Positions 115 through 58,718 of a stretch of DNA of 64,000 bases are shown piece after piece. Position numbers and translations under genes: made by a program. Origin of the DNA: Paraburkholderia aromaticivorans (lineage in GTDB: Bacteria > Pseudomonadota > Gammaproteobacteria > Burkholderiales > Burkholderiaceae); NCBI RefSeq assembly GCF_002278075.1, contig NZ_CP022989.1, positions 2,914,001 to 2,978,000 on the forward strand, written 5' to 3'. The notes beneath the pieces are model-generated. The model was not told where the DNA came from. It ran no database searches and saw only the letters and a list, made by a program, of their open reading frames with translations. Within the stretch, counting starts at the first letter, position 1. Each line of letters starts with the position of its first letter.

Positions 115-128
115 TTGATCTGGATCAG
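115..128. promoter_or_regulatory. FNR/ANR-like box TTGATctggATCAG
   Basis: One mismatch from the TTGAT-N4-ATCAA consensus. It lies 60 nt upstream of the minus-strand gene starting at 55. The identical 14-mer recurs at 16923-16936 in front of arcD. Confidence 0.7.
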
Positions 129-155
129 TTCGAACCGAACGCCGGGCGGTGGCGT

Positions 156-1619
156 CTATTCGGCGGACCGGGTGCTTGCAGCAGTCGGTGGCGGCACGCC
201 GGGAGGCGACGCTGCATTCGTGATGGCGGCGCACGGATCGACGCCCACCGTCCCCACCGAACCGGATAATTCGACGGTCTCAAGATAGATCGGCACTTCG
301 CAAGGCCAGTGATAGGTTTCCTCGATGTGGCGACGCATCGCGTCGGCCGCCGCCGGCTCGCCGTGCGTGACGAACGTGCGCTGCGGCGGCTGCGGAATCG
401 AGCGCAGCCACGATAGTGTCTCGGCGTAGTCCGCATGGGCCGATAACGACGACAGGCTCACCACCGAAGCGCGCACACGCACGTAGTCGCCGTGAATCTT
501 GATCGTCGGCGCACCGGCGGCGAGCGCCGCGCCGCGCGTGCCGGCCGCCTGGTAGCCGACCAGCGCGATCGTGTTGCGAAAGTCCGGAGCGAAGGCTTTC
601 AGGTGATGCACGACCCGGCCGCCGGTCGCCATGCCGCTGCCTGCGATGATCACCCGCGGGCCGTTCAGGCTCAGAATCGCCTTGGATTCTTCGACGGTGC
701 GCACCATCTGCGCGGCGTTGCTGATTGCGTTGGCCTCGGTCGAACTTAGCCGGTGTTCGCCGACGTGATGCCGGTAGAGCTGCGTGACGCTCGTCGCCAT
801 CGGGCTGTCGAGAAAGACCGGCACGTTCGCCATGCGGCCGCTGGCTTTCAGCTGGACGATGTAATGCAGGATCGATTGCGCGCGGCCCACCGCGAAACAG
901 GGAATCACAACGACGCCGCCGCGACGGAACGTGCTCTCGAAGACTTCCGCCAGTTCGGTGGCAGGATCGGTCCTCTCGTGCAGGCGGTCGCCGTAGGTGG
1001 ATTCAACGACCAGGTAGTCGGCCCTGGCGAGCGGCATCGGCGCGCGCATGATCGGGTCGTCCGGCCGGCCGAGGTCGCCCGAGAAGGCGATGACCTTGCC
1101 TTCGACGCACAGCACCACGCTCGCGGCGCCGAGAATGTGTCCGGCCGGCAACAGGCGGAAACACGCATGGTCGTTCAATTGCTTCGGCACGTCGAAATCG
1201 CGCGCTTCGAGTAACTCAAGCGCGTTTTCGGCATCTTCAAGTGTATACAGCGGCAATGCCGGATGATGTTTGGACAGGCCGTGGCGGTTCGCGTACCCGG
1301 CTTCTTCTTCCTGCAGTTTGGCGCTGTCGCGCAGCATGATCTGGCACAGGTCACGGGTGCCGCGCGTGCAATAGACCGGCCTGCGGTAGCCCGTGCGCAC
1401 GAGCATTGGGAGGTAGCCGCTGTGATCCAGATGCGCGTGGGTCAGAATAACGGCGTCGAGTTTGCCGACGTCGATCTGCAAGGGATTCCAGTTGCGCAGG
1501 CGCAGGTTCTTCGTACCCTGGAAGAGGCCGCAGTCGATCAGAATCCGAAGTCCCGCGCCTTCGAGTAGATACTTTGAACCGGTGACGGTTTCCGCCGCAC
1601 CGAGAAAGGTCAGCTTCAT
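156..1619 (-). CDS. MBL-fold beta-CASP ribonuclease/exonuclease-like protein
   Basis: 487 aa, a metallo-beta-lactamase fold protein with beta-CASP and RMMBL parts, related to YSH1/CPSF73-type RNA-processing hydrolases. The zinc motif THAHLDHSG is at residues 60-68 (H61, H63, D65, H66). Further signature segments are FSGDLGRPDDPIMRAP near 180 and SAHADYAETLSWL near 390, followed by TFVTHGEP. Family members are Zn-dependent nucleases acting on RNA in the cytoplasm, but the substrate here is unknown. The start is supported by AAGG about 6 nt upstream of the ATG. The last 30 or so residues are low-complexity. It lies downstream of the small gene at 1665-1904 with a 45-nt gap, so the two may be cotranscribed. 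Confidence 0.9.
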   Translation of the reverse strand: MKLTFLGAAETVTGSKYLLEGAGLRILIDCGLFQGTKNLRLRNWNPLQIDVGKLDAVILTHAHLDHSGYLPMLVRTGYRRPVYCTRGTRDLCQIMLRDSAKLQEEEAGYANRHGLSKHHPALPLYTLEDAENALELLEARDFDVPKQLNDHACFRLLPAGHILGAASVVLCVEGKVIAFSGDLGRPDDPIMRAPMPLARADYLVVESTYGDRLHERTDPATELAEVFESTFRRGGVVVIPCFAVGRAQSILHYIVQLKASGRMANVPVFLDSPMATSVTQLYRHHVGEHRLSSTEANAISNAAQMVRTVEESKAILSLNGPRVIIAGSGMATGGRVVHHLKAFAPDFRNTIALVGYQAAGTRGAALAAGAPTIKIHGDYVRVRASVVSLSSLSAHADYAETLSWLRSIPQPPQRTFVTHGEPAAADAMRRHIEETYHWPCEVPIYLETVELSGSVGTVGVDPCAAITNAASPPGVPPPTAASTRSAE

Positions 1620-1664
1620 TTCGCACCTTCCGTCAGAAATGGCCGCACATGGCGGGGAGTGAAC

Positions 1665-1904: not shown

Positions 1905-2264
1905 GATGGTCTCCTGATGACATAGGCAGGCGAGTTGGATGCTTGTCCTGCCGCGCGAACGTTTCGATTGCTGTTCCCGCTGAATTCAGTATTGGTCATC
2001 GAACAGAGGCGATAAATCAGGTGTCGCTGAGACCAGGGTAGGTATTGCTGCGTCAGTGTCAGCCGTTTCCTACACGCTGTCGCACGATGGATGTTAGGGA
2101 AAATTCGGCGTGCTGCGACGCTGTTCCCACGATAGACGATGATCCAGGTCAACTCCCCCGCACCGTCCTGCCCATACTTTTGTAATCAGGTGAGTTTTTA
2201 AAAAGCGGGCCGCTGATTTGCAACGGTGAATCGCGCCGTAGAACGTGAAAATGGGCAGGCTGAT
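1905..2264. other. Divergent intergenic region
   Basis: 360 nt between two divergent units. It has no convincing coding frame. An FNR-like box lies at 2139-2152. Nothing else recognised. Confidence 0.6.
2139..2152. promoter_or_regulatory. FNR/ANR-like box ATGATccagGTCAA
   Basis: Imperfect left half (ATGAT) and consensus-like right half. Centred about 120 nt upstream of the lipoprotein/K+ channel pair starting at 2265. Confidence 0.5.
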
Positions 2265-2711
2265 ATGAAGAACGGGCGGCTGGCAGCCTTCGCGCTGCTG
2301 ATGATCATCCTTGCTGGCTGCAATACCGAAGCACGCGTGGCGGCACGCCGCGACACCGAAATCGCGCTTGAAACGGCACGCGAACAGGCTCACGTGGACT
2401 GTTCCTCCTCTGCCGATTGCGAACGGTTATGGAGGCTCACCCGACTGTACGTCGTGCAACGCTCAGTGACGCCGATCCGCCGCGCGGACGACACCGCAAT
2501 CGAAACGGCCGAGCCGCACACATTCGGCGCAGTCTATGTGTGGGCGACGCGGACAAGTAACGCTGACGGCATGTCCACCATCGAAATCAAAGGCATGTGC
2601 CGGGGGATGTACCGCGCGGACGGCAATCCTGGCTGGTTGTACGGAACGTGTGCAGAACAGATTCGCTCGGTCGAAATGGAATTCCGCTCGTTCATCGGCG
2701 CGGCGTCATGA
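2265..2711 (+). CDS. Small lipoprotein of unknown function
   Basis: 148 aa. The N-terminus MKNGRLAAFALLMIILAGC is a lipoprotein signal peptide with lipobox LAGC, so the mature protein should be anchored in a membrane through Cys19. The mature part has further Cys residues (VDCSSSADC, KGMCRGMY, GTCAEQ) that could form disulphides in the periplasm. The start at 2265 is chosen because it begins directly at the signal peptide; an upstream in-frame codon at 2226 would add a charged, non-signal extension. It ends 13 nt before the K+ channel gene and is probably cotranscribed. No family recognised. Confidence 0.75.
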   Translation: MKNGRLAAFALLMIILAGCNTEARVAARRDTEIALETAREQAHVDCSSSADCERLWRLTRLYVVQRSVTPIRRADDTAIETAEPHTFGAVYVWATRTSNADGMSTIEIKGMCRGMYRADGNPGWLYGTCAEQIRSVEMEFRSFIGAAS

Positions 2712-2724
2712 GGACGGTGGCGAC

Positions 2725-3567
2725 ATGAAGGAGAGTTGGCATGTTGCCGGTCTCGGCGGCGTCGATCCTCATGACGATGCGCGAGCGGTGCGGGCATGGC
2801 GCTGGATGCAGTGGGCGCTGCTCGCTTTCAGCCTGCTTGCGATTCCCGCGTTCTATTTCGAACTGGCTGTTGCAGCCTGGTTTCATCCGGTCGGCCGTGC
2901 GCTCTATGCCTGCATGTCCGCCGGTTTCGTGGTGGTGCTGGCGCGAGTCACCTGTCTGAGCCGCAAACCTGAACGGTTCCTTACGCGCAACGGTTACGAC
3001 GTCCTGATTGCGGCAGGCGCGGGGATCAGCGTGGCTGGGGGTATGCCGCCGTGGTCGCCTCTCGAGTGGGTGCTGCGCATCTTTTTCGTGGGCCTCGTGG
3101 CGGCGCGCATCGTGTTGTCGTTACGAGGGTTTTTCTCGCCTGGGCGCCTGTGGCTGCTGCTGGTGACAGCCGTGTTGCTGCTCGCGTCCGCAGGGGCAGG
3201 GTTTTACTGGCTCGAACCGGGCGTGCACACGTATGCAGAAGGCGTCTGGCTCGCGTTCGAAAGCAGCGCGACAGTCGGCTATGGGGACATGGCGCCGACC
3301 ACGCCCGCGTCACGCGTGTTCGCCGCTTTCGTGGTGCTGCTGGGCTACGGCCTGTTGTCGCTTTTCTTCGCCAGCATTGCGGCAAATTTCGTCGAACAGG
3401 AAGAGCGGATCTTGCGGCGCGAAATGCATCGCGACATCAAGGCGCTACGCGACGAAATTGCCGCGTTGAGAAACGATATACAAACGCGAGGCGGCGATAC
3501 GCCCGTTGCTGCGGTTGCAGTCGATCCGGTCAACCCGGCGCCGTCTCATCCGGGCGAATCGCACTGA
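2725..3567 (+). CDS. Potassium channel protein (Ion_trans_2 type)
   Basis: 280 aa inner-membrane channel. The K+ selectivity filter TVGYGD is at residues 183-188, preceded by the pore helix (AEGVWLAFESSA) and flanked by hydrophobic helices at roughly 27-50, 57-78, 110-135, 142-162 and 195-222. A charged coiled-coil tail (223-255, EQEERILRREMHRDIKALRD) replaces the usual RCK domain, so gating is not by a visible nucleotide-binding domain. The start at 2725 follows AGGACGGTGGCGAC. The 3' end overlaps the convergent histidine kinase gene by 38 nt. The channel might help set membrane potential under energy limitation (inference). Confidence 0.88.
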   Translation: MKESWHVAGLGGVDPHDDARAVRAWRWMQWALLAFSLLAIPAFYFELAVAAWFHPVGRALYACMSAGFVVVLARVTCLSRKPERFLTRNGYDVLIAAGAGISVAGGMPPWSPLEWVLRIFFVGLVAARIVLSLRGFFSPGRLWLLLVTAVLLLASAGAGFYWLEPGVHTYAEGVWLAFESSATVGYGDMAPTTPASRVFAAFVVLLGYGLLSLFFASIAANFVEQEERILRREMHRDIKALRDEIAALRNDIQTRGGDTPVAAVAVDPVNPAPSHPGESH

Positions 3568-4798
3568 GCGGAATCCGCGCGGTGACGCGAAAGCCGCTGC
3601 CCGGTGCGGTGTCGATCGTCAGGTTGCCGCGTAGCTGGCGTACCCGTTCGCCCATGCCGAGCAGCCCGAATGAGCCACGCCTGCCGGCGTCGTCGAGCAC
3701 GGTTCCGCGGCCGTTGTCTTCGATATGGATCGAGCAGGTGTTCGCATCGCTCGATATCTCGACCATCACCTGAGTTGCCTGCGCATGCCGGGCCACATTC
3801 GTCAGCGCTTCCTGCACGATGCGAAAAAGCGCGGAAGACGCGAAAGGCGTGAAGCCCGTGTCGTCAATATCCATGTTGAGAATGGCGTTCACGTCAAAGC
3901 GTTGCGTGAAATCGTCTTTCAGGCACTCGAGCGCCGCGACGAGCCCAAGGTCATCCAGCAAGGGCGGCCGCAAGTTCGATGCGATGCGGCGCAGCGAGGT
4001 CATCATGTCGTCGATCTGACATTGCAGTTCGCTTGCCACAGCGGATCCATCAGGATCGCTAACGTTGGCGCCAATGCGCCGTTCCAGCACGACGACGCCC
4101 ATCTTGAGTGCCGTCAGCTGCTGGCCCAGATCGTCGTGCAATTCGCGGGCAATGCGTCTTTGCTCTTCCTCGCGCGCGTGCTGGATCTGCGCGGCCAGCT
4201 CGCTTGCATGCTCGAGTTCGGCAAGCCGCATGCGTTCGGTCATGTCGCGGGTCACCTTGGCAAAACCGAGCAAGGTGCCGGCCGCATCGTGAACCGCCGT
4301 GATCGTGACGTCCGCCCAGAATCGCGAGCCGTCGCGCCGGACGCGCCAGCCCTGGTCCGCCACGCGGCCTTGCGCTATCGCGAGCGCCAGTTCGCGGTCC
4401 GGCTTGCCAGCGGCGACATCTTCAGGTGTGTAGAAAATCGAGAAATGGCGGCCGATGATTTCCTCGGGCGCGTAGCCTTTGATCTTGTGCGCGCCGATGT
4501 TCCAGCTCGCCACGCGTCCTTCCTTATCGAGCATGAAGATCGCGTAATCCTGCACCGCGTCGATCAGCAATTGATAGCGATCCTCGACGGGGACGTCGGA
4601 ATCGCACGCTGCGGCAGATTTGCGGGTTGCATCGTTCCAGTTGAAAACCACTGGTATCTCCGAAAGTTGGCGAATTGCGAACGACTCGTCGACTGCAAGG
4701 ATAGACATGTCCCGACAGATTACGCCAAATTGTTCCTTTCCGCCGACGATAACCAGCGCAATCGCGCGACCATTCACGTTCGCGGCAAGCCATTCCAT
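3530..4798 (-). CDS. PAS-domain sensor histidine kinase (NarX/LiaS type)
   Basis: 422 aa. An N-terminal segment (1-55) of unknown type is followed by a PAS domain (about 72-190, with a PAC-like WADVTITAVHDAAGTLLGFA) and a HisKA_3 dimerisation domain with H-box ELHDDLGQQLTALKM near 221. An HATPase_c domain follows, with N-box ARHAQ and G-boxes DNGRG and GLLGMGERV. No membrane segment is visible, so it should be a cytoplasmic sensor. No response regulator is adjacent. The ATG at 4798 has no ribosome site because an FNR-like box (4801-4814) abuts it; a start further in, for example the ATG at 4708, is possible. Ligand unknown. Confidence 0.85.
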   Translation of the reverse strand: MEWLAANVNGRAIALVIVGGKEQFGVICRDMSILAVDESFAIRQLSEIPVVFNWNDATRKSAAACDSDVPVEDRYQLLIDAVQDYAIFMLDKEGRVASWNIGAHKIKGYAPEEIIGRHFSIFYTPEDVAAGKPDRELALAIAQGRVADQGWRVRRDGSRFWADVTITAVHDAAGTLLGFAKVTRDMTERMRLAELEHASELAAQIQHAREEEQRRIARELHDDLGQQLTALKMGVVVLERRIGANVSDPDGSAVASELQCQIDDMMTSLRRIASNLRPPLLDDLGLVAALECLKDDFTQRFDVNAILNMDIDDTGFTPFASSALFRIVQEALTNVARHAQATQVMVEISSDANTCSIHIEDNGRGTVLDDAGRRGSFGLLGMGERVRQLRGNLTIDTAPGSGFRVTARIPLSAIRPDETAPG

Positions 4799-4800
4799 GG

Positions 4801-4814
4801 TTGATACAGGTCAA
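4801..4814. promoter_or_regulatory. FNR/ANR-like box TTGATacagGTCAA
   Basis: Both half sites are intact. It lies 108 nt upstream of the phasin gene at 4923 and only 2 nt from the longest possible start of the divergent kinase gene. It most likely serves the plus-strand unit. Confidence 0.7.
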
Positions 4815-4922: not shown

Positions 4923-5462
4923 ATGACCGGCACATCCGTCACGCCCCTCGATCTGTATCGGGCCACTCTTTCGTTCGCGCTAAGGCTACTGAGCTTCAGT
5001 CACCAGGCGCGGCAGCAGGCCTGTGAGTTCGAGATGCAGCGTATACGGCGTGACCTGGCGGCGGCGTGCGCCATTGGCAATGCGGCTTCGGCAGCGCGGG
5101 ACTGGAGCGCGCTCGCGGTGTCGCTGCAGACAGTATTGCGCGATTACATGGCGACCACCACCAATCTCTGGCAGCAAGGTCTCGGCTCGGCCGTGCAACT
5201 GCAAACCGGATCCTTCGAGGGGCTGCGCGACGCGTTCGCGACTTGGCAGGCGGCTTCGACCGACCCATGGCCCGCGTATGCGCCGATGAACCCTGTCATG
5301 CTGCCGTGGCAAGAGTGGCTGCAGCGCCTGGGCGGCGCTGCGGCCCGACCTGTCGTGCGAGCGGCTCGCAGCGAAGCCGGCTATGAACCCCATTCCGCAA
5401 ATTCCTCCGCGCCGCCGACTGCCAGCGGTTCCGCGCAAGATGGAGGGCATCATGTCGGCTAA
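4923..5462 (+). CDS. Phasin-like protein
   Basis: 179 aa, mostly helical, matching phasin-family features: a long amphipathic helical region (LYRATLSFALRLLSFSHQAR onward) and a Pro/Ser/Ala-rich tail. Phasins coat polyhydroxyalkanoate granules. AGGAGA lies 6-7 nt before the ATG. The gene overlaps the start of the acetoacetyl-CoA reductase gene by 11 nt, which supports a role in PHB metabolism and translational coupling. A second phasin is at 12363. The family call rests on overall character and context rather than a sharp motif. Confidence 0.7.
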   Translation: MTGTSVTPLDLYRATLSFALRLLSFSHQARQQACEFEMQRIRRDLAAACAIGNAASAARDWSALAVSLQTVLRDYMATTTNLWQQGLGSAVQLQTGSFEGLRDAFATWQAASTDPWPAYAPMNPVMLPWQEWLQRLGGAAARPVVRAARSEAGYEPHSANSSAPPTASGSAQDGGHHVG

Positions 5463-6198
5463 ACGCGTTGCTTTTGTCACCGGCGGCATGGGGGGATTGG
5501 GCGCGGCGATCAGCCGGCGTCTGCACGATGCGGGCATGACGGTGGCGATGACCCATTCCGAACTCAACGATCATGTCGCCACCTGGCTCGTGCGGGAGCG
5601 CGAAGCCGGACGCTACTTCGTCGCATTCGAGGCCGACGTGTCCAGCTTCGACTCGTGCGCGCATTGCGCCGAGCGTGTGCTCGCCGAATTCGGTACGGTG
5701 GACATTCTGGTGAATAATGCGGGCATTACCCGCGATTCGACGTTTGCGAAGATGAATAAGGAAGACTGGGACAAGGTGCTGCGCACCGATCTCGATTCCT
5801 TGTTCAACGTGACCAAGCCGCTGATCAGCGGGATGGTCAAGCAGCAGTTCGGGCGCATCGTCAATGTCAGTTCCGTGAACGGCGCGCGCGGTGCCTTCGG
5901 GCAGACCAACTACGCGGCCGCCAAGGCGGGCATACACGGGTTTACGATGTCGCTCGCCCTGGAGGTGGCCAGACACGGCGTGACCGTCAATACGGTGTCG
6001 CCAGGCTATCTTGCGACGGCAATGACCTCGGCCGTTCCCAAGGACGTGATCGAAACGAAAATCCTCCCGCAGATTCCGGTGGGGCGTCTCGGTCGGCCGG
6101 ACGAAGTTGCAGCCGTCGTGGCCTTTTTGTGCTCCGAAGACGCCGGTTTCGTCACCGGCGCGGATTTCGCCGTCAACGGCGGCATGCACATGGGGTGA
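5452..6198 (+). CDS. phbB: Acetoacetyl-CoA reductase (PhaB/PhbB-like SDR)
   Basis: 248 aa short-chain dehydrogenase, the usual length. It has the NADPH-binding glycine motif TGGMGGLG (residues 10-17), NNAG, the catalytic Ser in VNVSSVNG and the YxxxK pair in NYAAAKAG. The TRD and FNVTK segments are typical of PhaB. It reduces acetoacetyl-CoA to (R)-3-hydroxybutyryl-CoA for PHB synthesis, which also consumes reducing equivalents. The ATG at 5452 has a GGAGGG ribosome site and lies inside the end of the phasin gene. No phaA or phaC is nearby, so this is probably an accessory copy tied to oxygen limitation. Confidence 0.9.
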   Translation: MSAKRVAFVTGGMGGLGAAISRRLHDAGMTVAMTHSELNDHVATWLVREREAGRYFVAFEADVSSFDSCAHCAERVLAEFGTVDILVNNAGITRDSTFAKMNKEDWDKVLRTDLDSLFNVTKPLISGMVKQQFGRIVNVSSVNGARGAFGQTNYAAAKAGIHGFTMSLALEVARHGVTVNTVSPGYLATAMTSAVPKDVIETKILPQIPVGRLGRPDEVAAVVAFLCSEDAGFVTGADFAVNGGMHMG

Positions 6199-6235: not shown

Positions 6236-7909
<1,674 letters not shown>

Positions 7910-7968: not shown

Positions 7969-7982
7969 TTGACCGACATCAT
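7969..7982. promoter_or_regulatory. FNR/ANR-like box TTGACcgacATCAT
   Basis: One base off in the right half. 59 nt upstream of the minus-strand gene starting at 7909, a spacing seen at several other boxes here. Confidence 0.5.
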
Positions 7983-8016: not shown

Positions 8017-8030
8017 TTGACACACGTCAA
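8017..8030. promoter_or_regulatory. FNR/ANR-like box TTGACacacGTCAA
   Basis: Perfect inverted repeat TTGAC/GTCAA. 107 nt from the minus-strand start at 7909 and 186 nt from hsp20 at 8216; it could serve either side. Confidence 0.7.
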
Positions 8031-8215: not shown

Positions 8216-8644
8216 ATGAGCAACTTGACCCGATTTGATCCGTTTCCCCTCGAACCCATGTCGGAACTCTTTCAGGGCCTGTTCCGGCCGCTACGCGGCG
8301 CGGGTGGCGAAGCGCCGCTGGCGGATATCAAGGTCGACGTGACGGAAAGCGATAGCGGGTACACCGTGAAGGCGGAACTGCCGGGCGTCGAAAAGAAGGA
8401 CATCGACGTAAAAATCGACGGCAACCTTGTTTCGATCAGCGCGAAAGTCGAACGGAATCAGGAAATGAAAGAAGGCGAACGGGTGATTCGCCGGGAACGT
8501 TATTCGGGCGCCGTCAGCCGTGCCTTTTCATTGGCGAGCGAAGTCGACGAGAGCGCCGCGGCGGCGGAGTACAAGGACGGCGTGCTCTCGCTCACGCTGC
8601 CGAAGAAGGCGAGCTCCGAACGCAAGCGCCTGCAGATCAACTGA
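8216..8644 (+). CDS. Hsp20 family small heat shock protein
   Basis: 142 aa, typical length. The alpha-crystallin domain spans about residues 36-135 (DIKVDVTESDSGYTVKAELP, GVEKKDIDVKID, YKDGVLSLTLPKK). Small heat shock proteins are ATP-independent holdases that bind unfolding proteins in the cytoplasm. The start has AGGAG 7 nt upstream. A strong hairpin (8652-8686) follows the stop codon, and a BON gene follows at 8720. Placement with Usp, CBS and nitroreductase genes recalls hspX in the DosR regulon. Confidence 0.95.
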   Translation: MSNLTRFDPFPLEPMSELFQGLFRPLRGAGGEAPLADIKVDVTESDSGYTVKAELPGVEKKDIDVKIDGNLVSISAKVERNQEMKEGERVIRRERYSGAVSRAFSLASEVDESAAAAEYKDGVLSLTLPKKASSERKRLQIN

Positions 8645-8651
8645 TCTGGGT

Positions 8652-8686
8652 TCGCGCGGAACCGGACGGATTCGGGTTCCGCGCGA
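8652..8686 (+). terminator. Strong hairpin after hsp20, no T-tract
   Basis: Perfect 12-bp stem (8652-8663 with 8675-8686) and an 11-nt loop, 8 nt after the hsp20 stop. There is no run of T, so it may be an mRNA-stability or processing element, or a partial attenuator between hsp20 and the BON gene. Confidence 0.55.
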
Positions 8687-8719
8687 CATCGCTAGCCGTA
8701 TGCTGACAAGGAGCATGCA

Positions 8720-9370: not shown

Positions 9371-9410
9371 GCATGCGCGCTCGGTTGCGGGGCGCACGGG
9401 CGCCCGCCGT

Positions 9411-9430
9411 GCGCCGCTCGTGAGCGGCGC
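9411..9430. repeat. Intergenic inverted repeat (9-bp arms)
   Basis: Near-perfect 20-nt palindrome of 9-bp arms (GCGCCGCTC) separated by 2 nt, between the BON gene and the small gene at 9463. It may fold in RNA; no T-tract follows. Confidence 0.5.
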
Positions 9431-9462
9431 GGCATGGACGGCGCACTATCAAGGAGCGATTC

Positions 9463-11106: not shown

Positions 11107-11120
11107 TTGACTTGGGTCAT
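11107..11120. promoter_or_regulatory. FNR/ANR-like box TTGACttggGTCAT
   Basis: One mismatch in the right half. 60 nt upstream of adhP (start 11046). Confidence 0.6.
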
Positions 11121-11408: not shown

Positions 11409-11422
11409 TTGATTTGAGTCAA
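11409..11422. promoter_or_regulatory. FNR/ANR-like box TTGATttgaGTCAA
   Basis: Both half sites intact. 204 nt upstream of the CBS-BON gene at 11627, which is farther than most; it could instead drive an unrecognised small minus-strand transcript. Confidence 0.6.
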
Positions 11423-11626
11423 GGGGCAGGGGCTGCCGCCGCTACTCCATCCGCGACCGCATTCGCAGGTGCGCGCAACGGCCTTCGGGATGATCCACAT
11501 CAAACGGCGCGATGCCGGGCCGGCCTAATCTGAAACCACCCGGGGGCCTACCAAGGTCTGGATGCTGATCATCGAGACGGACCGGTCCCACGAATTCAAT
11601 GATCCTAACTGTTCAGGAGGCTTACC

Positions 11627-14100: not shown

Positions 14101-14136
14101 AAGCGAATTCTCCAGAGGTGCGACGCGCGTTTCGCG

Positions 14137-15354: not shown

Positions 15355-15382
15355 CAGATTTCTCCTGAATAAAATGGGTGGC

Positions 15383-16922: not shown

Positions 16923-16936
16923 TTGATCTGGATCAG
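16923..16936. promoter_or_regulatory. FNR/ANR-like box TTGATctggATCAG (arcD side)
   Basis: 46 nt upstream of arcD. Identical in all 14 bases to the box at 115-128. Confidence 0.75.
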
Positions 16937-17034: not shown

Positions 17035-17048
17035 TTGATGAAGGTCAG
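17035..17048. promoter_or_regulatory. FNR/ANR-like box TTGATgaagGTCAG (N-ATPase side)
   Basis: 61 nt upstream of the first gene of the N-ATPase operon. One mismatch. It suggests arcDAB and atpDCQRBEFAG diverge from one oxygen-responsive control region. Confidence 0.6.
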
Positions 17049-17079: not shown

Positions 17080-19051
<1,972 letters not shown>

Positions 19052-19055
<4 letters not shown>

Positions 19056-23793: not shown

Positions 23794-23807
23794 TTGACGC
23801 AGGTCAG
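23794..23807. promoter_or_regulatory. FNR/ANR-like box TTGACgcagGTCAG
   Basis: One mismatch. 100 nt upstream of the universal stress protein gene at 23908. Very similar to the box at 25184-25197. Confidence 0.65.
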
Positions 23808-25183: not shown

Positions 25184-25197
25184 TTGACGCAGATCAG
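25184..25197. promoter_or_regulatory. FNR/ANR-like box TTGACgcagATCAG
   Basis: 98 nt upstream of the nitroreductase start (25085). Confidence 0.65.
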
Positions 25198-25482: not shown

Positions 25483-25496
25483 TTGACGTGCATCAA
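25483..25496. promoter_or_regulatory. FNR/ANR-like box TTGACgtgcATCAA
   Basis: Both half sites fit. 79 nt upstream of the tandem Usp gene at 25576. Confidence 0.7.
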
Positions 25497-29695: not shown

Positions 29696-29709
29696 TTGAC
29701 CTCGATCAA
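29696..29709. promoter_or_regulatory. FNR/ANR-like box TTGACctcgATCAA
   Basis: 143 nt upstream of the second BON gene at 29853, just after the P-type ATPase stop. Confidence 0.65.
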
Positions 29710-32649: not shown

Positions 32650-32663
32650 TTGATGTGTGTCAA
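32650..32663. promoter_or_regulatory. FNR/ANR-like box TTGATgtgtGTCAA
   Basis: 64 nt upstream of the small membrane protein gene (minus) and 196 nt from the DHH gene (plus). Confidence 0.7.
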
Positions 32664-41071: not shown

Positions 41072-41085
41072 TTGATGTGCATCAA
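41072..41085. promoter_or_regulatory. FNR/ANR-like box TTGATgtgcATCAA
   Basis: Exact match to the E. coli FNR consensus TTGAT-N4-ATCAA. Probably serves the minus-strand run beginning at 40889. Confidence 0.8.
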
Positions 41086-41152: not shown

Positions 41153-41166
41153 TTGACTTGAGTCAA
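41153..41166. promoter_or_regulatory. FNR/ANR-like box TTGACttgaGTCAA
   Basis: Perfect inverted repeat of half sites. 109 nt upstream of BON copy 3. Confidence 0.75.
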
Positions 41167-41966: not shown

Positions 41967-41980
41967 TTGATCTGAATCAC
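41967..41980. promoter_or_regulatory. FNR/ANR-like box TTGATctgaATCAC
   Basis: One mismatch at the last base. 77 nt upstream of the BCAM0308-like gene at 42058. Confidence 0.65.
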
Positions 41981-45886: not shown

Positions 45887-46198
45887 GCTGCCTCCCTGGG
45901 CTTGTCTCGGACCCGTCAATCGATACCGGCGCCGGTTGTCATTGTGCTGGCGAACTCACGCGCGCGTTGCTCGCGATGTCACGCCCGGCCGGGTAAGCGA
46001 TCCGGAAAAATCCTTCGCATAGCCGGGGATAACGTTGCGCCGGCCAGTTCTCATGGGGTTGACCGGGATCAATGATCCAGGGTTCACAACGAATACTGTT
46101 GGTTTGCGGGGCTCGAACGGCTCGCGCCGGGCGGCGTGTGTCGATACTTCCGCTCATCAGCCCAGTCCATGGGGTCATTAGAACAGGGAGAAGGCTCA
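45887..46198. other. Divergent intergenic region
   Basis: 312 nt between phaZ (minus) and lemA (plus) with one perfect FNR-like box (46059-46072). No coding frame supported. Confidence 0.6.
46059..46072. promoter_or_regulatory. FNR/ANR-like box TTGACcgggATCAA
   Basis: 126 nt upstream of lemA and 172 nt from phaZ. Both half sites fit. Confidence 0.7.
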
Positions 46199-52326: not shown

Positions 52327-52802
52327 GATCGGTCGATGGACGACTTCGGTCGAATTATGCGATCTGTTCTAACGTATGCGTGACCCGGCAAATGCATGAC
52401 GCAACGTCCACTGTCGATTAATGCACATGCTCACTGCCATGGCATTAGTCACGGTAATTCACATCTTCACGAAAGAAGGGTTGCTCTCGTTTGAGCGAAG
52501 TCAAGAAACCCCGCGCTACGTCGCGGCGATGGATAGAAATCGCTCATCTCGCGTTGAGTGCGTTTGTCGTTCGTGGCCGTTTTTCAACCTTTCCGATCCG
52601 TTGCGGTACGTCAAGGGGACTTGAGAAAGTCCGCGTAGTCTCAACCCGGAGTGTGCGCCGAAGCCGACATATCGCATGACATGTGACGGCCGCATCTGTC
52701 GGGATCACGCAGTCCATGTAGCCATCCGGAGCGCGGTTCGCCGGATCAAGCCTGCGTCGCTCGAAGCGACCACCGGGCGAATGACAATTTGGGGGCATTG
52801 AT
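52327..52802. other. Intergenic region upstream of cydPABX
   Basis: 476 nt between cydP (minus) and the small plus-strand gene at 52803. It has one FNR-like box at 52491-52504; no convincing coding frame. Confidence 0.6.
52491..52504. promoter_or_regulatory. FNR/ANR-like box TTGAGcgaaGTCAA
   Basis: One base off (TTGAG). 164 nt upstream of cydP. Cytochrome bd genes are classic oxygen-regulated targets. Confidence 0.5.
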
Positions 52803-53213: not shown

Positions 53214-54344
53214 TCAGTCGAGCGATTTGCGAAAGCGCAATACGCTTAGCGTGAGCATGAACGCGCCGAGCGCCGCCATTGCGGCGAGTTGCGGCCACAG
53301 CACTGCAAAGCCGGTGCCTTTCAGAAAAACCGAGCGCAGCACGACGAGAAAGTAACGCAGTGGGTTGATCAGCGTAATCCATTGGAGGACTTTAGGCATT
53401 GCGGCAATAGGAAATGCGAAACCCGACAGAATAAAAAGCGGGTTAATCAGAAAGAAGTTGAGTGCGAATGCCTGTTGCTGTGTGCGCGAGAAGGTGGACA
53501 GCAGCAAACCGAGACCGAGTGCGGCGAACAGAAACAGTGATGCGCCGACCAGCATGACGAGCGGGTTGCCGACGAACGGAACCCGAAACCATCCTATACC
53601 CACCACCGTCACGAGGGCCACGTCGCCAAGGCCGATCAGAAAGAACGGCACGGTCTTGCCGAGGATAAACTCGACCGGCCTGATCGGACTCACCATGATC
53701 TGCTCCAGCGTGCCGATCTCCCGTTCGCGAACCACGGCAAACGCGGTGAGGCTGACCACCTGCATCAGCGTGAGCGTGCCGACCACGCCTGGGATGAAGA
53801 ACCAGCGATCGTCGATAGTGTCGTTATACCAGGGCCGCTCGCGCAGGGTCACGGCGACTTCAGGCGGCGAGGCGCCCGTATAGTTCGACCACGGGTCGCT
53901 CATCTGATCGGTCTGGAACTGCGTGACGATGCGGCTGACATAGCCGAGCGCGATCAGCGCCGTGTTGGAGTTCGTGCCGTCCACGATGACCTGCAGCGGT
54001 GCGCTCTGGCCGTTGCGCAGATGCTGCGCGAAGCCCGCATGGATCACGAGCGCCATCGTCGCCTTGTCGCTATCGATGTCATGCGTAATGTCGCGTTCTG
54101 TCATCGCGTGATCGACGACATCGAACTTGCCGGTGGCGACGAAATGCGAGGCGAGGTTCCGGCTGGCCTCGCTGCGGTCCAGATCGAGTATGGCGAGGCT
54201 CACATGATTGACGGTGAAGGTCGCGGCGTAGCCATAGATGATCACCTGCAGCAGCAGCGGCACGACCAGCCGGAAGATCGCCCACGGGTCGCGCCTGAGT
54301 TCGAGGAACTCCTTCATCAACATGACCTGCAGGCGGTCGAACAT
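53214..54344 (-). CDS. ABC-2 type transporter permease (YbhR-like)
   Basis: 376 aa. N-terminal cytoplasmic helix MLMKEFLELRRDPWAIFRLV, first membrane helix, a large periplasmic domain (about 45-175), then five helices. Family motif REREIGTLEQIMVSPIRPVE lies between helices 2 and 3, and GFAFPIAAMP near the end. It pairs with the permease at 54351 to form the export channel. Last gene of the five-gene operon, 6 nt after the previous stop. Confidence 0.92.
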   Translation of the reverse strand: MFDRLQVMLMKEFLELRRDPWAIFRLVVPLLLQVIIYGYAATFTVNHVSLAILDLDRSEASRNLASHFVATGKFDVVDHAMTERDITHDIDSDKATMALVIHAGFAQHLRNGQSAPLQVIVDGTNSNTALIALGYVSRIVTQFQTDQMSDPWSNYTGASPPEVAVTLRERPWYNDTIDDRWFFIPGVVGTLTLMQVVSLTAFAVVREREIGTLEQIMVSPIRPVEFILGKTVPFFLIGLGDVALVTVVGIGWFRVPFVGNPLVMLVGASLFLFAALGLGLLLSTFSRTQQQAFALNFFLINPLFILSGFAFPIAAMPKVLQWITLINPLRYFLVVLRSVFLKGTGFAVLWPQLAAMAALGAFMLTLSVLRFRKSLD

Positions 54345-54350
54345 GATGTG

Positions 54351-55487
54351 CTAGTCCAGATGTTTGCGGAACGCCCGCGCGGCGAGCCAGATGATGGCCA
54401 GCGCATACACGGCCAGCGCGAGAATCGGCATGGCGAGGTCGGCAAGGTTGCTGCCTTTCAGGAACACCGCCCGCAGGATGGTGATGTAGTAGCGAGCGTA
54501 GACGAGCAGCGTGGCGAGCTGGATCGGCGCGGGCATCTGGTCGATGGCGAAGGTGTAACCCGACAGCATGCTGGTCGGCAGCATCGTCAGCAGCAGCGCC
54601 ACCTGGCTGGCGCCGAGCTGGCTGCGAATGTGAACCGACACCAGATAGCCGATGCCCAGCACCACGAGCGTAAACAGCGCGGTGGTGGCGATCAGGGTGC
54701 CGACACTGCCGCGCAACGGGACGTGGAACCAGTAAACCGTGCTGAGCAGACAGAATGCGGCATTCACGAGTCCGATCACGAAGTACGGGAGCAGCTTGCC
54801 GAGCATGACTTCGAGCGCGGTAACGGGCGTCGAGATGAGTTGCTCCATCGTGCCGCGCTCCCACTCGCGCGAGATGGTCAGCGACGTGAGCTGCGCGCCG
54901 ACCAGCGCCAGAATGACCGCGACGACGCCGGGGATGATGAAGTTGCGGCTGTCGAGCGTCTCGTTGAACCAGACACGCGGTTCGAGGTCGACCGTCCCGA
55001 CGGTGTGGGCCCGTATGCCGTGGGTTTGCTGCCAGCGCAACTGAAACTCCGCCGTGACTCGCGCGATGACGTTCTGCGCGTAGCCGATCGCAATGTTGGT
55101 CGTATTGGCATCGGTCGCATCGAACACGGTTTGCACCGATGCATTGCCTGTCGTGGTGAAGACGCGGGAAAAATCGACCGGGATGGTGACGACACCCGCA
55201 CACGTGCCGCGATCCATCGCATCGCGCAGTTCGCGCTCGTTGTCGACATTGCGGACCGCCACGAACCAGCGCGACGACACGAAGTCCTGCACGAGCTCAC
55301 GGCTGAGCTGGCTGTGTTCCTCGTCGTTGATGCACAGCGGCACGCGCCGGATGTCGAGGCTGACGCCATAGCCGAGCAGCACCATCTGCAACAACGGCAT
55401 CAGCAGCGCGATGGCGAGACTGCGCGGATCGCGCCAGATCTGCAGCGTTTCCTTGAAAGCCATCGCCAGCAGTCGCCGCAGGCTCAT
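54351..55487 (-). CDS. ABC-2 type transporter permease (YbhS-like)
   Basis: 378 aa, same topology as its neighbour. N-terminal AFKETLQIWRDPRSLAIALL, a large extracytoplasmic region, then SREWERGTMEQLISTPVTAL and a closing YFVGIG/TLLVYARYYITILRAV-type region. Overlaps the upstream ATPase gene by ATGA. Together the two permeases form a heterodimer. Confidence 0.92.
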   Translation of the reverse strand: MSLRRLLAMAFKETLQIWRDPRSLAIALLMPLLQMVLLGYGVSLDIRRVPLCINDEEHSQLSRELVQDFVSSRWFVAVRNVDNERELRDAMDRGTCAGVVTIPVDFSRVFTTTGNASVQTVFDATDANTTNIAIGYAQNVIARVTAEFQLRWQQTHGIRAHTVGTVDLEPRVWFNETLDSRNFIIPGVVAVILALVGAQLTSLTISREWERGTMEQLISTPVTALEVMLGKLLPYFVIGLVNAAFCLLSTVYWFHVPLRGSVGTLIATTALFTLVVLGIGYLVSVHIRSQLGASQVALLLTMLPTSMLSGYTFAIDQMPAPIQLATLLVYARYYITILRAVFLKGSNLADLAMPILALAVYALAIIWLAARAFRKHLD

Positions 55488-56434
55488 GGTGCGTGCGCTC
55501 CCTGGTCCGCGTGGGTGACGAGCTGGACGAACACATCTTCAAGGCTCGCCCGGATCGCCCGCACCGTCGTCAAGGCGATATGCCGTTGCGCAAGACGTTG
55601 CTGAAGCACGGTTTCAGGCACGCCCAGGTGCATCAGCACGTGGAGCCTGTCGCCAAAGATCGCGGCGTCGATCACCTCGGGCGCTTCGCGCAGCGCCGCG
55701 AGGGCCGCGCCAAGCGGCGCGCACACCACCTCGAACAGGCTGCCTCCGAGATTGTGTTCGCGCAGCTCATTGGGGCTGCCGATCGCAACCAGATGTCCCG
55801 CATCGATCAGCGCGATGCGGTGGCAGTATTCCGCTTCGTCCATGTAATGCGTGGACACCAGCACGGTGACGCCGCCCGCGGCAAGGCCGTGAATCAGGTC
55901 CCAGAAGCGGCGGCGCGCCTCGGGCTCGACGCCTGAGGTCGGTTCATCGAGAAACAGCACGGGCGGGCGGTGCAGATTCGCGCAGCCGAGTGCGAGCCGC
56001 TGCTTCCAGCCGCCCGCGAGCGTGCGCACCAGGATATTTTCACGTCCCTCGAGTCCCGCGGTCGAAATGGCGAGTTGGATACGCTCGGCGATTTCGTGCC
56101 GGGGAACCCGGTAGATGCCGCAAAAAAAGCGCAGGTTTTCGTGGCAGGTCAAGTCGCCGTACAGCGAGAACTTCTGCGACATGTAGCCGATGTGCGAGCG
56201 TAGCGCCTCGGCCTGGGTGGCGACGTCGAAGCCGGCCACGGATGCGCGCCCGGCACTGGGCGAAAGCAGCCCGCACAGCAGGCGGATGGTGGTCGATTTG
56301 CCCGCGCCGTTCGGCCCGATGAAGCCAACCACTTCGCCTCTCGCGATCGACAGGTCGAGCCGGTCGACCGCCGTGAACGAGCCAAACCGCTTGGTCAGGC
56401 CGATTGCCTCGACGACGGGCGCAGCGGCGCTCAT
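55484..56434 (-). CDS. ABC transporter ATP-binding protein (second)
   Basis: 316 aa. Walker A is GPNGAGKS and Walker B is VLFLDEPTSGVEP. The signature reads TLAGGWKQRL instead of LSGGxKQR, so one ATP site may be weak. The C-terminal extension (about 230-316) is typical of drug/lipid exporters. The start at 56434 overlaps the previous ATPase stop by ATGA. In E. coli YbhF the two ATPase halves are fused; here they are separate genes. Confidence 0.92.
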   Translation of the reverse strand: MSAAAPVVEAIGLTKRFGSFTAVDRLDLSIARGEVVGFIGPNGAGKSTTIRLLCGLLSPSAGRASVAGFDVATQAEALRSHIGYMSQKFSLYGDLTCHENLRFFCGIYRVPRHEIAERIQLAISTAGLEGRENILVRTLAGGWKQRLALGCANLHRPPVLFLDEPTSGVEPEARRRFWDLIHGLAAGGVTVLVSTHYMDEAEYCHRIALIDAGHLVAIGSPNELREHNLGGSLFEVVCAPLGAALAALREAPEVIDAAIFGDRLHVLMHLGVPETVLQQRLAQRHIALTTVRAIRASLEDVFVQLVTHADQGAHAP

Positions 56435-57375
56435 GTCGGGCTCCCTGAGCCGACGAGCGCGACGAAGACGTCTTCGATGCCCGGCTCGATGGCCGTGATG
56501 GTTGCGTGTGCAACGGCACGTCCGGCAAGCCGGGCCTGCAACTCTGGCAGGCGGCGCGCGGCGTCGTCCACGCGCACGTGCACACGGTCGCCCATCAGCA
56601 AGGCGCTGAGCACACCGGGCGCGTCCCCCAGCGCGCCGTGTACCGCGCGCGGGTCGGCCGCGGCGATGGCGAACAGGGCCCCGGGCATGGCCTGCTTTAA
56701 CCGTGCCGGCGTGTCGCACTGGCGGATTTGCCCGGTATGCAGCAGCGCGAGCCGCGAACAGCGTTCGGCTTCGTCCATATATGCAGTGGACAGCACGATA
56801 GTGACACCGCTCTCGCGCAGGCTGTACAGGATTGCCCAAAAATCGCGCCGCGACACCGGGTCCACGCCGGTGGTCGGCTCATCCAGCAGCAGCACGCGTG
56901 GTGTGTGAATCAACGCGCACACGAGGCCGAGTTTCTGTTTCATGCCGCCCGACAGTTGCCCGGCGAGACGATCCCGGAATGGCACGAGGCCGGCGGCCTC
57001 CAGAAGTTCGCCGCTGCGGATTCGATTGGCTTTGCGCGACACCCCGAAGAGTTCGCCGTAGAAGAAAATGTTTTCGGCGACGCTCAGGTCTTCGTACAGA
57101 CCGAAACGCTGAGGCATATAGCTAAGGGCCGCTTTCGCGCGCTCGGGTGCCGCTATCACGTCGATATTCTCGAGCGAGATCCGACCGGCGTCCGGCCGCA
57201 GCACACCCGCCAGCATGCGCATGATGGTGGTCTTGCCGGCGCCGTCTGGGCCGACGAGGCCGAAGATTTCCCCGCGTTCGATATCGAAGCTGACACCACG
57301 CACTGCCTGCACCGCCCCGAATCCGCGGACCAGGTCCTGGGCGTGGACGGAGATTGCTGCGGGGGCGGGGTTCAT
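56431..57375 (-). CDS. ABC transporter ATP-binding protein (first)
   Basis: 314 aa. Walker A variant GPDGAGKT, signature QLSGGMKQKLGL and Walker B VLLLDEPTTGVDP. The consensus signature contrasts with its partner. Overlaps the HlyD gene stop by ATGA and its own stop overlaps the next gene. Confidence 0.93.
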   Translation of the reverse strand: MNPAPAAISVHAQDLVRGFGAVQAVRGVSFDIERGEIFGLVGPDGAGKTTIMRMLAGVLRPDAGRISLENIDVIAAPERAKAALSYMPQRFGLYEDLSVAENIFFYGELFGVSRKANRIRSGELLEAAGLVPFRDRLAGQLSGGMKQKLGLVCALIHTPRVLLLDEPTTGVDPVSRRDFWAILYSLRESGVTIVLSTAYMDEAERCSRLALLHTGQIRQCDTPARLKQAMPGALFAIAAADPRAVHGALGDAPGVLSALLMGDRVHVRVDDAARRLPELQARLAGRAVAHATITAIEPGIEDVFVALVGSGSPT

Positions 57376-58361
57376 TGCCCGGCCGCCAGCAAGGCGATCG
57401 ACGCGTCGGCGGGCATGCCCGGCAGCAGTTCATGCGTCGGGTTGTCGATGTCGATGCGGATCCGGTAGACCAGCGTCACGCGTTCGGCGTGCGTCTCGAC
57501 GGTTTTCGGCGTGAACTCGGCCTGCGGGGAAATGAAGCTGATGCGCCCCTGGTAAGTCTTGCCGGCGTAGGTGTCGGTCGTCACGGTGGCGGGTTCGTTC
57601 AGACGGATTTTGCCGATGTCGGGCTCGTTCACATACGCACGCAGCCAGACGTGATCGAGTTCATCGAGCGTGAAGATCGCGACGCCCGGCCCCGCGAGCT
57701 GCCCGAGCTCCGCTTCGCGTACTGCGATGACGCCGTTGAACGGCGCGCGCAGCTCGGTATAGGAGAGCGTGATTTCGTCGAGCTCGAGCTTCGCCTCGGC
57801 GGCGGCCTGGTTGGCGCGCGCGAGCGCGATGTTGTTGCTCGCGACCTCCACCAGCGCCTTGTCGTGTGCCAGGGTCGTGGCGGATTGCCGCTCGGCGGTA
57901 TAGGCGAGGTCACGCACCTGGCGCGGAATGGCGTTGCCTTTCACCAGATTCTCCGCGCGCCCCAAATCCAGTTGCTTTTCGCTGAGGTCGAACTGATCGC
58001 TCACCACGTTGTGGCGTGCCGCGGCGAGCGTGCTCTCATTGGCGCTGATCTGCGCCGTGGCGACCTGCAGGTTGGTACGGTCGATTTCCGTCTGCTGGCG
58101 GTACAGGCGATCGTCGACGCGCGCGAGCACGGTGCCGCGCTCGACATAGGCGCCTTCGTCGAACGGCAGATACACGATCGGCGCCTGGACCTGGGTGACG
58201 CTCAGAACGCTTTCGTGAGCCTCGATGTTGCCGGACACCACGATATGGGTCGTATCATGACGGGAGCCGAACAGCACTGGCCAACGCCACGCCACGATGC
58301 CGGCCGCCGCAATGGCGACTAGCGCGAGCAGGGCCTGCGTGCGGTGTTTCGATAGGGCCAT
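57372..58361 (-). CDS. HlyD-family membrane fusion protein (YbhG-like)
   Basis: 329 aa. N-terminal membrane anchor (ALLALVAIAAAGIVAWRW), then a biotinyl-lipoyl-like half (SGNIEAHESVLSV, FDEGAYVERGTVLARVDD), an alpha-helical hairpin (about 95-205) and the second lipoyl half LRAPFNGVIAVREAELGQ. It is the periplasmic adaptor linking the permeases to an outer-membrane channel, which is not encoded here. First gene of the operon; a perfect FNR-like box lies 107 nt upstream. Confidence 0.93.
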   Translation of the reverse strand: MALSKHRTQALLALVAIAAAGIVAWRWPVLFGSRHDTTHIVVSGNIEAHESVLSVTQVQAPIVYLPFDEGAYVERGTVLARVDDRLYRQQTEIDRTNLQVATAQISANESTLAAARHNVVSDQFDLSEKQLDLGRAENLVKGNAIPRQVRDLAYTAERQSATTLAHDKALVEVASNNIALARANQAAAEAKLELDEITLSYTELRAPFNGVIAVREAELGQLAGPGVAIFTLDELDHVWLRAYVNEPDIGKIRLNEPATVTTDTYAGKTYQGRISFISPQAEFTPKTVETHAERVTLVYRIRIDIDNPTHELLPGMPADASIALLAAGQ

Positions 58362-58718
58362 GTTTTCGGCTCGGTTGAAGCGCTTCCGGATGGAGCATGC
58401 GAAACCGGAGGCCGCTCACTTTTCTATGTTGCGTCTGCTGAAGATAGAGCCGTGACCGCTCCGGCCAATTGACTCAAGTCAAGTTGAAACCCGGTAGGGG
58501 CCGGGTCGCGGTGAATTGGCCGCGATACGGCATGGTTGATGCATTGAGCCGGTCCCGTGCCGCGCTGCCGGCGCAGCACTCGATTCCCTCAAATCTGGTC
58601 TAGTGTTGTAGTCGTCATGCGGGCGCTTTCGTCTATCGTGCGCTCGAGTGCCTCCCCACTTCGAGAGCCGATGGCGATGGCGTGGGGTGTCCATCCGATT
58701 GTTTTCGGAGGAGGAGCG
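58362..58718. other. Divergent intergenic region, exporter versus hydrogenase
   Basis: 357 nt with one perfect FNR-like box (58469-58482), which is nearer the exporter. An in-frame extension of the hydrogenase gene to 58557 lacks a ribosome site and is not supported. Confidence 0.6.
58469..58482. promoter_or_regulatory. FNR/ANR-like box TTGACtcaaGTCAA
   Basis: Perfect inverted repeat. 107 nt upstream of the HlyD gene and 236 nt upstream of the hydrogenase operon. Confidence 0.75.

What the first reader, a model, noticed from the sequence alone, without database searches (positions are those of the whole stretch)
115..58482. A single FNR/ANR-type regulon spans the whole window
About twenty 14-bp sites of the form TTGAY-N4-RTCAR are found, nearly all in intergenic DNA, and at least one lies before almost every transcription unit. 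Exact or near-exact sites: 4801, 8017, 11409, 25483, 29696, 32650, 41072, 41153, 46059, 58469. One- or two-mismatch sites: 115, 2139, 7969, 11107, 16923, 17035, 23794, 25184, 41967, 52491. Distances to start codons mostly fall at 46-79 or 98-126 nt. Many left halves are TTGAC rather than TTGAT, which may mark a particular FNR-family protein. The E. coli FNR and Pseudomonas ANR consensus is established; the link here is inference.
Basis: partly seen in the sequence, partly recalled or inferred. Interest (0 to 1): 0.85.

Follow-up and report, generated by a model that had tools for sequence, protein, structure and literature searches.

The report
FNR-controlled low-oxygen survival gene island
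An 80-kilobase stretch of a bacterial genome is a collection of likely low-oxygen survival genes in which most transcription units carry their own switch site for an oxygen-sensing protein of the FNR type; it belongs to a known kind of locus, but related sets also sit, reshuffled and with their own sensor, on plasmids.

Summary
All 20 listed sites are at the stated coordinates, 10 exact and 10 with one mismatch to TTGAYN4RTCAA. Shuffles give almost none; all 10 exact sites are intergenic; the window holds 10 of the genome's 72 exact sites in 0.7% of its length. The cluster starts 21.5 kb left of the window and ends at 58482.

New evidence: a -10 element lies 21-22 bp from the edge of 16 of 29 boxes, against 0.14 per offset elsewhere. 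That is class II FNR geometry, box near -41.5. 23 of 42 island unit heads show it, 0 of 47 internal genes. In relatives the units are reshuffled but 30 of 36 tested promoters keep it.

An FNR with the four cysteines lies in the island, 17 kb left of the window. Gene content resembles the Burkholderia cenocepacia lxa locus; FNR-box-like motifs are already reported for many low-oxygen genes there. The TTGAC idea fails. Plasmid pOLGA1 carries a rearranged version with its own FNR. Which of three FNR paralogs acts, and the oxygen response, are untested.

The parts
115..128 (.). FNR box TTGATCTGGATCAG (1 mismatch), -10-like CACAGT at 22 facing left to a nitroreductase-family gene whose start lies at window position 55
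2139..2152 (.). FNR box (1 mismatch), -10-like TACTTT at 22 facing right to 2265-3567 (unknown protein, ion channel)
4801..4814 (.). FNR box exact, class II -10 TACATT at 21 facing right (4923-6198, unknown ORF and acetoacetyl-CoA reductase)
7969..7982 (.). FNR box (1 mismatch), -10 TATTCT at 21 facing left (APH/AAA protein 6236-7747)
8017..8030 (.). FNR box exact, class II -10 TAGAGT at 21 facing right (Hsp20, BON unit 8216-9738)
11107..11120 (.). FNR box (1 mismatch), -10-like GATACT at 21 facing left (Zn-alcohol dehydrogenase)
11409..11422 (.). FNR box exact, no -10 at 21/22; 81 bp from box 11490
11490..11503 (.).
16923..16936 (.). FNR box (1 mismatch) 58 nt before arcD start (arcD-arcA-arcB unit 13102-16864); no -10 at 21/22
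17035..17048 (.). FNR box (1 mismatch), class II -10 TATCTT at 21 facing right (N-type ATPase operon 17179-23733)
23794..23807 (.). FNR box (1 mismatch), -10-like GATGAT at 21 facing right (universal stress protein; predicted start probably too early)
25184..25197 (.). FNR box (1 mismatch), -10 TACCGT at 21 facing left (nitroreductase)
25483..25496 (.). FNR box exact, -10-like GAGAAT at 21 facing right (tandem universal stress protein)
29696..29709 (.). FNR box exact, class II -10 TAGTCT at 21 facing right (BON protein)
32650..32663 (.). FNR box exact, class II -10 TATGCT at 21 facing left (lipocalin 488 bp away, then a PF03641-family gene)
41072..41085 (.). FNR box exact, class II -10 TATGCT at 21 facing left (unknown protein, PEP synthase, PfkB)
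41153..41166 (.). FNR box exact, class II -10 TATGGT at 22 facing right (BON protein)
41967..41980 (.). FNR box (1 mismatch) before the unit with FtsH, no -10 at 21/22
46059..46072 (.). FNR box exact, class II -10 TACTGT at 21 facing right (LemA-TPM); also 172 nt before PHB depolymerase, weak -10-like CAACGT facing it
52491..52504 (.). weak FNR box (1 mismatch) 266 nt before cydP-cydA-cydB, -10-like GAAGAT at 22 facing left
58469..58482 (.). FNR box exact, class II -10 TATCTT at 22 facing left (HlyD/ABC-2 unit); last box of the island; 236 nt before the hydrogenase operon without a -10 facing it
58719..63755 (+). sulfhydrogenase-type NiFe hydrogenase operon; right edge, regulation uncertain
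   Evidence: NCBIfam matches below their cut-offs

Best explanation
The window is most of an ~80 kb lxa-type low-oxygen island. Without oxygen, an FNR-family protein keeps its [4Fe-4S] cluster, dimerises and binds TTGAY-N4-RTCAA boxes centred near -41.5, and so activates many separate class II promoters. These drive universal stress proteins, arginine fermentation, an N-type ATPase, cytochrome bd, PHB and acetate metabolism, chaperones and proteases for anoxic survival. Shown here: the boxes, their enrichment, the fixed box-to--10 distance, their placement at unit heads, their retention in rearranged relatives, and an FNR gene with the four cysteines in the island. Inferred: oxygen dependence, DNA binding, activation, and that the island's own FNR (C1:2895786-2896571) is the main regulator (about 0.5; paralogs may share the sites).
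For: Enrichment and intergenic bias. -10 element (TANNNT) at 21/22 bp from 16 of 29 boxes, against 0.14 per offset over 57 other offsets. Genome-wide class II pattern: 31 places, 0 for the reversed control, 12 of them in the island; random placement reaches at most 6 in 90 kb in 5000 simulations. Of 42 island unit heads 32 have a box and 23 are class II (NANNNT accepted); of 47 internal genes 2 and 0; of 27 flank heads 0 have a box. Eleven permuted half-sites give a box at 0-5 heads each and class II at 0-1. Orthologs of class II heads in four relatives: 30 of 36 class II. FNR matches solved FNR structures at about 6e-54, with C-x2-C-x5-C, the later Cys and LETVSR. Across 144 genomes of the genus, class II counts rise with FNR copies (Spearman 0.76).
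Against: No expression or binding data. 19 of 42 island unit heads lack the class II signature and 5 of 28 window heads lack any box. Orthologs of island genes without a box have one in 23 of 83 cases (class II in 14), so membership is not fixed. NCBIfam's Fnr model scores 221.8 against a cut-off of 228. Three paralogs prevent assigning the sites to one protein. 31 of 82 genomes with a close island-type FNR have fewer than 10 class II sites, and 3 of 62 without one have 10 or more; in two of those three (G015, G096) a 59%-identical copy lies inside a site cluster. The 144-genome correlation is not corrected for relatedness, and FNR gene and sites share an island. The footprint started from pairs chosen for having boxes and -10 elements.
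Confidence: 0.9

Rival explanations
1. The boxes are read mainly by a non-iron-sulfur CRP/FNR relative (FixK- or DNR-type) that shares the TTGA-N6-TCAA core, so the signal would be a kinase cascade or nitric oxide rather than oxygen at the protein itself.
For: The core motif is shared by FNR, FixK and DNR (general knowledge). A PAS-HisKA_3 kinase and LuxR-type regulator lie next to the island FNR. The Herbaspirillum Fnr1 motif is described as very similar to E. coli Fnr and Bradyrhizobium FixK2 sites (PMC5934665).
Against: Of the 15 HTH_Crp_2 hits examined (of 23 found), the only long proteins with the E-x-x-S-R helix are the three with the cysteine pattern; one further 91-aa frame has RETVSR. 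In the genus, FNR copies track site number.
Confidence: 0.07
2. Several FNR paralogs share the boxes, possibly as heterodimers as proposed for Herbaspirillum, so this is not one regulon of one protein.
For: Three proteins with the cysteine pattern and identical LETVSR helices. Fnr1/Fnr3 interaction and hybrid sites in H. seropedicae (PMC5934665). In B. cenocepacia H111 deleting anr2 lowered anoxic survival and deleting both anr genes abolished it (PMC9104464).
Against: No half-site asymmetry in 67 oriented sites. The 34 genomes with one FNR copy have few strict sites, median 1, range 0-9, so the conserved copy alone goes with few sites.
Confidence: 0.45
3. Chance or base-composition artefact, or a dispersed palindromic repeat.
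For: Palindromes can accumulate between genes.
Against: Shuffles, permuted half-sites and the reversed control give few or none. The central four bases and flanks differ from site to site. The -10 is at a fixed distance.
Confidence: 0.01

Closest known systems
Low-oxygen-activated (lxa) locus of Burkholderia cenocepacia (BCAM0275a-0323; Sass et al. 2013, known here only through citing papers)
   Same: About 50 genes; several universal stress proteins, Hsp20, BON, DUF1488, cytochrome c, a nitro/flavin reductase, acetoacetyl-CoA reductase, a phosphofructokinase and an FNR gene inside; FNR-box-like motifs reported for many low-oxygen-induced genes of that species
   Different: This island also carries arginine deiminase genes, an N-type ATPase, cydPAB and a NiFe hydrogenase, none of which is named in the lxa passages I saw (I did not see the full lxa gene list). 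PMC3759415 reports no arginine fermentation genes in B. cenocepacia strains. Related islands sit on plasmids
Anr/Fnr regulons of Pseudomonas and Herbaspirillum
   Same: FNR-type box, several Fe-S FNR paralogs, universal stress proteins among Herbaspirillum targets
   Different: Here 12 of 31 strict class II promoters lie in 80 kb; I did not measure clustering in those genera
DosR dormancy regulon of Mycobacterium tuberculosis
   Same: Low-oxygen survival set with several universal stress proteins and alpha-crystallin (comparison drawn in PMC6127331)
   Different: Controlled by a response regulator, not FNR (general knowledge)

Membership tests
FNR/ANR regulator family (island protein C1:2895786-2896571) | Four cysteines for [4Fe-4S] and E-x-x-S-R recognition helix | tested here: met
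   CTVCSMRSIC, later Cys aligned with the FNR one, LETVSR; match to FNR structures over residues 37-260
FNR/ANR regulator family (island protein C1:2895786-2896571) | NCBIfam Fnr subfamily model above its cut-off | tested here: not met
   Best model is Fnr PRK11161, but 221.8 bits is under the cut-off of 228; the cut-off is a naming threshold, not a defining part of the mechanism
FNR/ANR regulator family (island protein C1:2895786-2896571) | Oxygen-labile cluster and anaerobic DNA binding | not testable with these tools
   needs purified protein
Class II FNR promoters | Box centred near -41.5, -10 at 21-22 bp from box edge | tested here: met
   16 of 29 boxes with TANNNT, 24 of 29 with NANNNT; 23 of 42 unit heads
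Class II FNR promoters | Mapped transcription start and low-oxygen induction | not testable with these tools
   no expression data
lxa locus | Cluster with FNR, multiple USPs, Hsp20, BON, cytochrome c, nitroreductase, PhbB, PfkB | tested here: met
   Pfam and NCBIfam against names in PMC6127331; cytochrome c and DUF1488 names come from annotated orthologs on pOLGA1
lxa locus | Induction by low oxygen and role in anoxic survival | not testable with these tools
   no experiment here
lxa locus | Gene-by-gene orthology with BCAM0275a-0323 | not tested
   Sass 2013 not held; the B. cenocepacia stretch fetched had no annotation and was not analysed

The most novel reading that the evidence does not exclude
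The island is a self-contained, portable oxygen-response regulon. The oxygen sensor (FNR, next to a kinase-regulator pair) and more than 20 independently promoted target units travel together between chromosome and plasmids. Selection keeps each unit's FNR promoter while unit order is reshuffled, so the cluster is held together by co-regulation and joint transfer rather than by operon structure.
Probability: 0.5. Interest if true: 0.65.

Novelty: new variant of a known kind. Interest (0 to 1): 0.5.

Why it matters
Aerobes of the Burkholderia group survive anoxia with gene sets whose wiring is poorly worked out; one paper read here in passages calls the functions of the several B. cenocepacia FNR regulators poorly defined (PMC4505428). 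This island gives a compact set of well-placed promoters for testing which FNR paralog does what. If related islands really move on plasmids with their own sensor, anoxia tolerance could be gained in one step. Many independent promoters kept while gene order shuffles is also a clean case for asking why co-regulated genes cluster without forming operons.

Tried and rejected
TTGAC half-sites as a paralog signature: rejected. Shuffle, reversed-pattern and permuted-half-site controls: chance rejected. FNR boxes around the same ATPase in distant bacteria: in 16 loci whose titles name what I recall as alphaproteobacteria there are 0-4 boxes each, and 3 of 16 have one with a -10 (offsets 20-23 allowed), so the wiring does not follow the ATPase itself. 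Closer relatives vary too: boxes with a -10 number 7 in B. lata, 3 in B. anthina, 0, 1 and 4 in three Caballeronia and 0 in Trinickia loci of about 21 kb. Transcription-start paper PMC4603805: no hit in a term search for lxa or FNR. Paper searches for FNR-box mapping of such an island in Paraburkholderia, or for a plasmid-borne one, showed none in their listings (long listings were capped); the library lacks most subscription papers. An Hsp20 search of plasmids put the P. graminis and OLGA172 plasmids on top again, then more distant hits. The B. cenocepacia and B. stagnalis stretches came without annotation and were not analysed.

Limits: gene models come from a simple codon-usage caller of my own, so starts and unit heads are approximate. 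The footprint used pairs selected for boxes. The 144-genome comparison is not corrected for relatedness, adds both strands, and its island-type FNR class is a cut at best E 1e-96 chosen after seeing the values. Searches use TANNNT; one search gives both TANNNT and NANNNT; accept NANNNT. Searches used numbers copied by hand. One search tested clustering in 3 genomes, two of them picked because their listing looked clustered. One search read the regulators without regard to strand and was replaced.


Full report
CHECK OF THE OBSERVATION. Three more one-mismatch sites exist: 11490, 17542 and 37969. Dinucleotide shuffles give a mean of 0.53 strand matches (maximum 5) for TTGAYN4RTCAR where 25 are seen, at 15 places. 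Eleven other arrangements of the same half-site letters give one exact site in total. All 10 exact and 11 of 13 one-mismatch sites are intergenic, although only 16.1% of the window is; of 52 two-mismatch sites 11 are. Genome-wide there are 72 exact places against 14 for the reversed control; 10 are in the window and 15 in C1:2892504-2972482. Binomial probabilities are about 1e-10 and 1e-16.

EXTENT. Reading 38 kb to the left and 20 kb to the right shows 29 sites with at most one mismatch between C1:2892504 and 2972482, and none in 2876001-2892503 or 2972483-2998000. The unit is therefore an island of about 80 kb that starts 21.5 kb before the window and ends at window position 58482.

ORGANISM. 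Not told. FNR coordinates in several same-genus genomes equal those in named Paraburkholderia plasmid records (for example G001, G154, G167), so the genus is very probably Paraburkholderia (inference).

GENES. Pfam and NCBIfam identify, in the window: an MBL/RMMBL nuclease-like protein, an ion channel, a PAS-HisKA_3 kinase, acetoacetyl-CoA reductase, Hsp20, three BON proteins, alcohol dehydrogenase, CBS-BON, phasin, arcD/arcA/arcB, an N-type ATPase operon with AtpR, two universal stress proteins, nitroreductase, a P-type ATPase, a PF03641-family protein, lipocalin, an erythromycin-esterase-family protein, PfkB, PEP synthase, FtsH, PHB depolymerase, LemA/TPM, cydP-cydA-cydB, an HlyD/ABC-2 unit and a sulfhydrogenase-type NiFe hydrogenase (matches below NCBIfam cut-offs). 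Five of 59 window proteins gave no Pfam match. To the left lie four more universal stress proteins, an acetyl-CoA synthetase-like protein, a YaaH-type transporter, an MCRA (oleate hydratase) protein and others. Next to them sits a unit of PAS-HisKA_3 kinase, LuxR-type response regulator, short receiver protein and FNR. The gene models are my own. This reads as a set for surviving, not growing, without oxygen (inference from families).

PROMOTER GEOMETRY. If the boxes are class II FNR sites, a -10 element should start 21-22 bp from the box edge. Counting TANNNT at offsets 0-59 on both sides of the 29 boxes gives 12 at offset 21 and 4 at offset 22; the mean over 57 other offsets (20 to 22 left out) is 0.14. 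16 of 29 boxes have one, and 24 of 29 with the looser NANNNT, whose background is 1.8 per offset. The two coding sites have none. The combined pattern occurs 31 times in the 8.9 Mb genome, 0 times in the reversed control, and 12 of the 31 are in the island. Random placement of 31 sites reaches at most 6 in 90 kb in 5000 simulations. By unit (NANNNT accepted): 32 of 42 island unit heads have a box and 23 are class II; of 47 internal genes, 2 and 0; of 27 flanking heads, 0 have a box. Permuted half-sites give a box at 0-5 heads and class II at 0-1. In the window: 28 heads, 23 with box, 16 class II.

CONSERVATION. Orthologs of class II heads are themselves class II in 8 of 8, 4 of 4, 11 of 13 and 7 of 11 cases. 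Adjacency across unit boundaries is kept in only 4 of 11, 1 of 4, 1 of 14 and 2 of 13. Orthologs of island genes that have no box here have one in 23 of 83 cases and are class II in 14, so membership shifts as units are rebuilt. In 30 promoter pairs the box halves are 94% and 99% identical, the -10 66%, the central four bases 42%, the spacer 37% and the far flank 29%. Because pairs were chosen for having boxes and -10 elements, the identities of those parts are partly built in; the retention counts and the low flank identity are what inform. Clusters also occur outside the genus: of 60 family genomes searched, G040 has 11 of its 14 class II sites within 77 kb and G061 8 of 12 within 57 kb; I read these two from the listing and did not tabulate the rest.

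REGULATOR. The island FNR, 17-18 kb left of the window, matches solved FNR structures over residues 37-260 at about 6e-54 and has the C-x2-C-x5-C cysteines, the later cysteine and the LETVSR helix. Its NCBIfam score is under the Fnr cut-off (221.8 against 228). Two other proteins in the genome have the same features (15 of 23 HTH_Crp_2 hits examined). Over the 144 genomes of the genus that the search returned, the number of class II sites rises with the number of FNR copies: medians 3, 1, 5, 13, 25 and 15 for 0 to 5 copies (7, 34, 55, 32, 9 and 7 genomes), Spearman 0.76. Ten or more sites occur in 51 of 82 genomes with a close island-type FNR and in 3 of 62 without. In two of those three (G015, G096) a 59%-identical FNR lies inside a site cluster. 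The correlation is not corrected for relatedness, and site clusters contain the FNR gene, so it shows association only.

TTGAC. In 67 oriented class II sites, C and T are equally common at position 5, and the four main combinations with position 10 are about equal. The letter is tolerated rather than diagnostic. In the 57 sites with spacing 21, positions 7 and 8 prefer pyrimidine then purine (84% and 86%).

PLASMIDS. On the fetched pieces of pOLGA1 (about 200 of 271 kb), 73 of 89 island genes (51 of 65 window genes) have a homolog at 45% identity or more over 60% of length, against 0 of 33 flanking genes. The plasmid carries 26 class II sites, 0 in the control, and its own FNR with kinase and regulators. 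Genome G154 has an FNR at the same coordinates as pOLGA1 and 30 class II sites in all; if G154 is OLGA172, 26 of its 30 sites are on this one plasmid. PLSDB types pOLGA1 as non-mobilizable. A 494 kb plasmid of P. graminis, typed as conjugative by PLSDB, carries the FNR, kinase, regulators, stress proteins, Hsp20 and others in a smaller set, with 7 class II sites all within 25 kb. Transfer itself is not shown.

KNOWN WORK. I saw passages only of each paper named here. The lxa locus of B. cenocepacia is described as a 50-gene low-oxygen-induced cluster needed for anoxic persistence; proteins named from it include universal stress proteins, a heat shock protein, BON, DUF1488, cytochrome c, a nitro/flavin reductase and PhbB, with phosphofructokinase BCAM0311 (PMC6127331). 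It includes an FNR gene, and an FNR-box-like motif is associated with many genes induced at low oxygen (PMC4505428). In strain H111, which lacks lxa, the two anr genes together are needed for anoxic survival and a box precedes cyd (PMC9104464); cyd expression depends on Anr (PMC11742914). The original paper was not held. What I add is the class II geometry unit by unit, the reshuffling with promoter retention, the enlarged gene content and the plasmid versions. Searches listed no paper making these points, in a partial library.

VERDICT. It is a new variant of a known kind.

Noticed in passing
G000:C4:76725-95798 and G000:C3:67465-71007: Two smaller clusters of class II FNR promoters elsewhere in the same genome (4 in 19 kb and 3 in 3.5 kb), the first with LemA, TPM and FtsH homologs.
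   Followed up: partly
window 7969/8017, 41072/41153 and 11409/11490; left flank -12252/-12205: Box pairs come at 47-48 bp or 81 bp spacing, each seen twice; in three of the four pairs the two -10 elements face away from each other.
   Followed up: no
window 59869-60327: A lone cyclic-nucleotide-binding-domain protein is encoded inside the NiFe hydrogenase operon and is kept in the pOLGA1 copy.
   Followed up: no
window 4801 and 3530-4798: The box lies 2 nt before the predicted start of the PAS-HisKA_3 kinase while its -10 faces the other way; either the start is wrong or the box could block the kinase gene.
   Followed up: no
window 53214-58361: The HlyD/ABC-2 unit with a class II FNR promoter has no homolog on the fetched pOLGA1 pieces, so it may be a later recruit to the regulon.
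   Followed up: no
G198:C1:2876013 and G007:C2:14524: Close FNR copies in two other genomes contain an internal stop codon.
   Followed up: no
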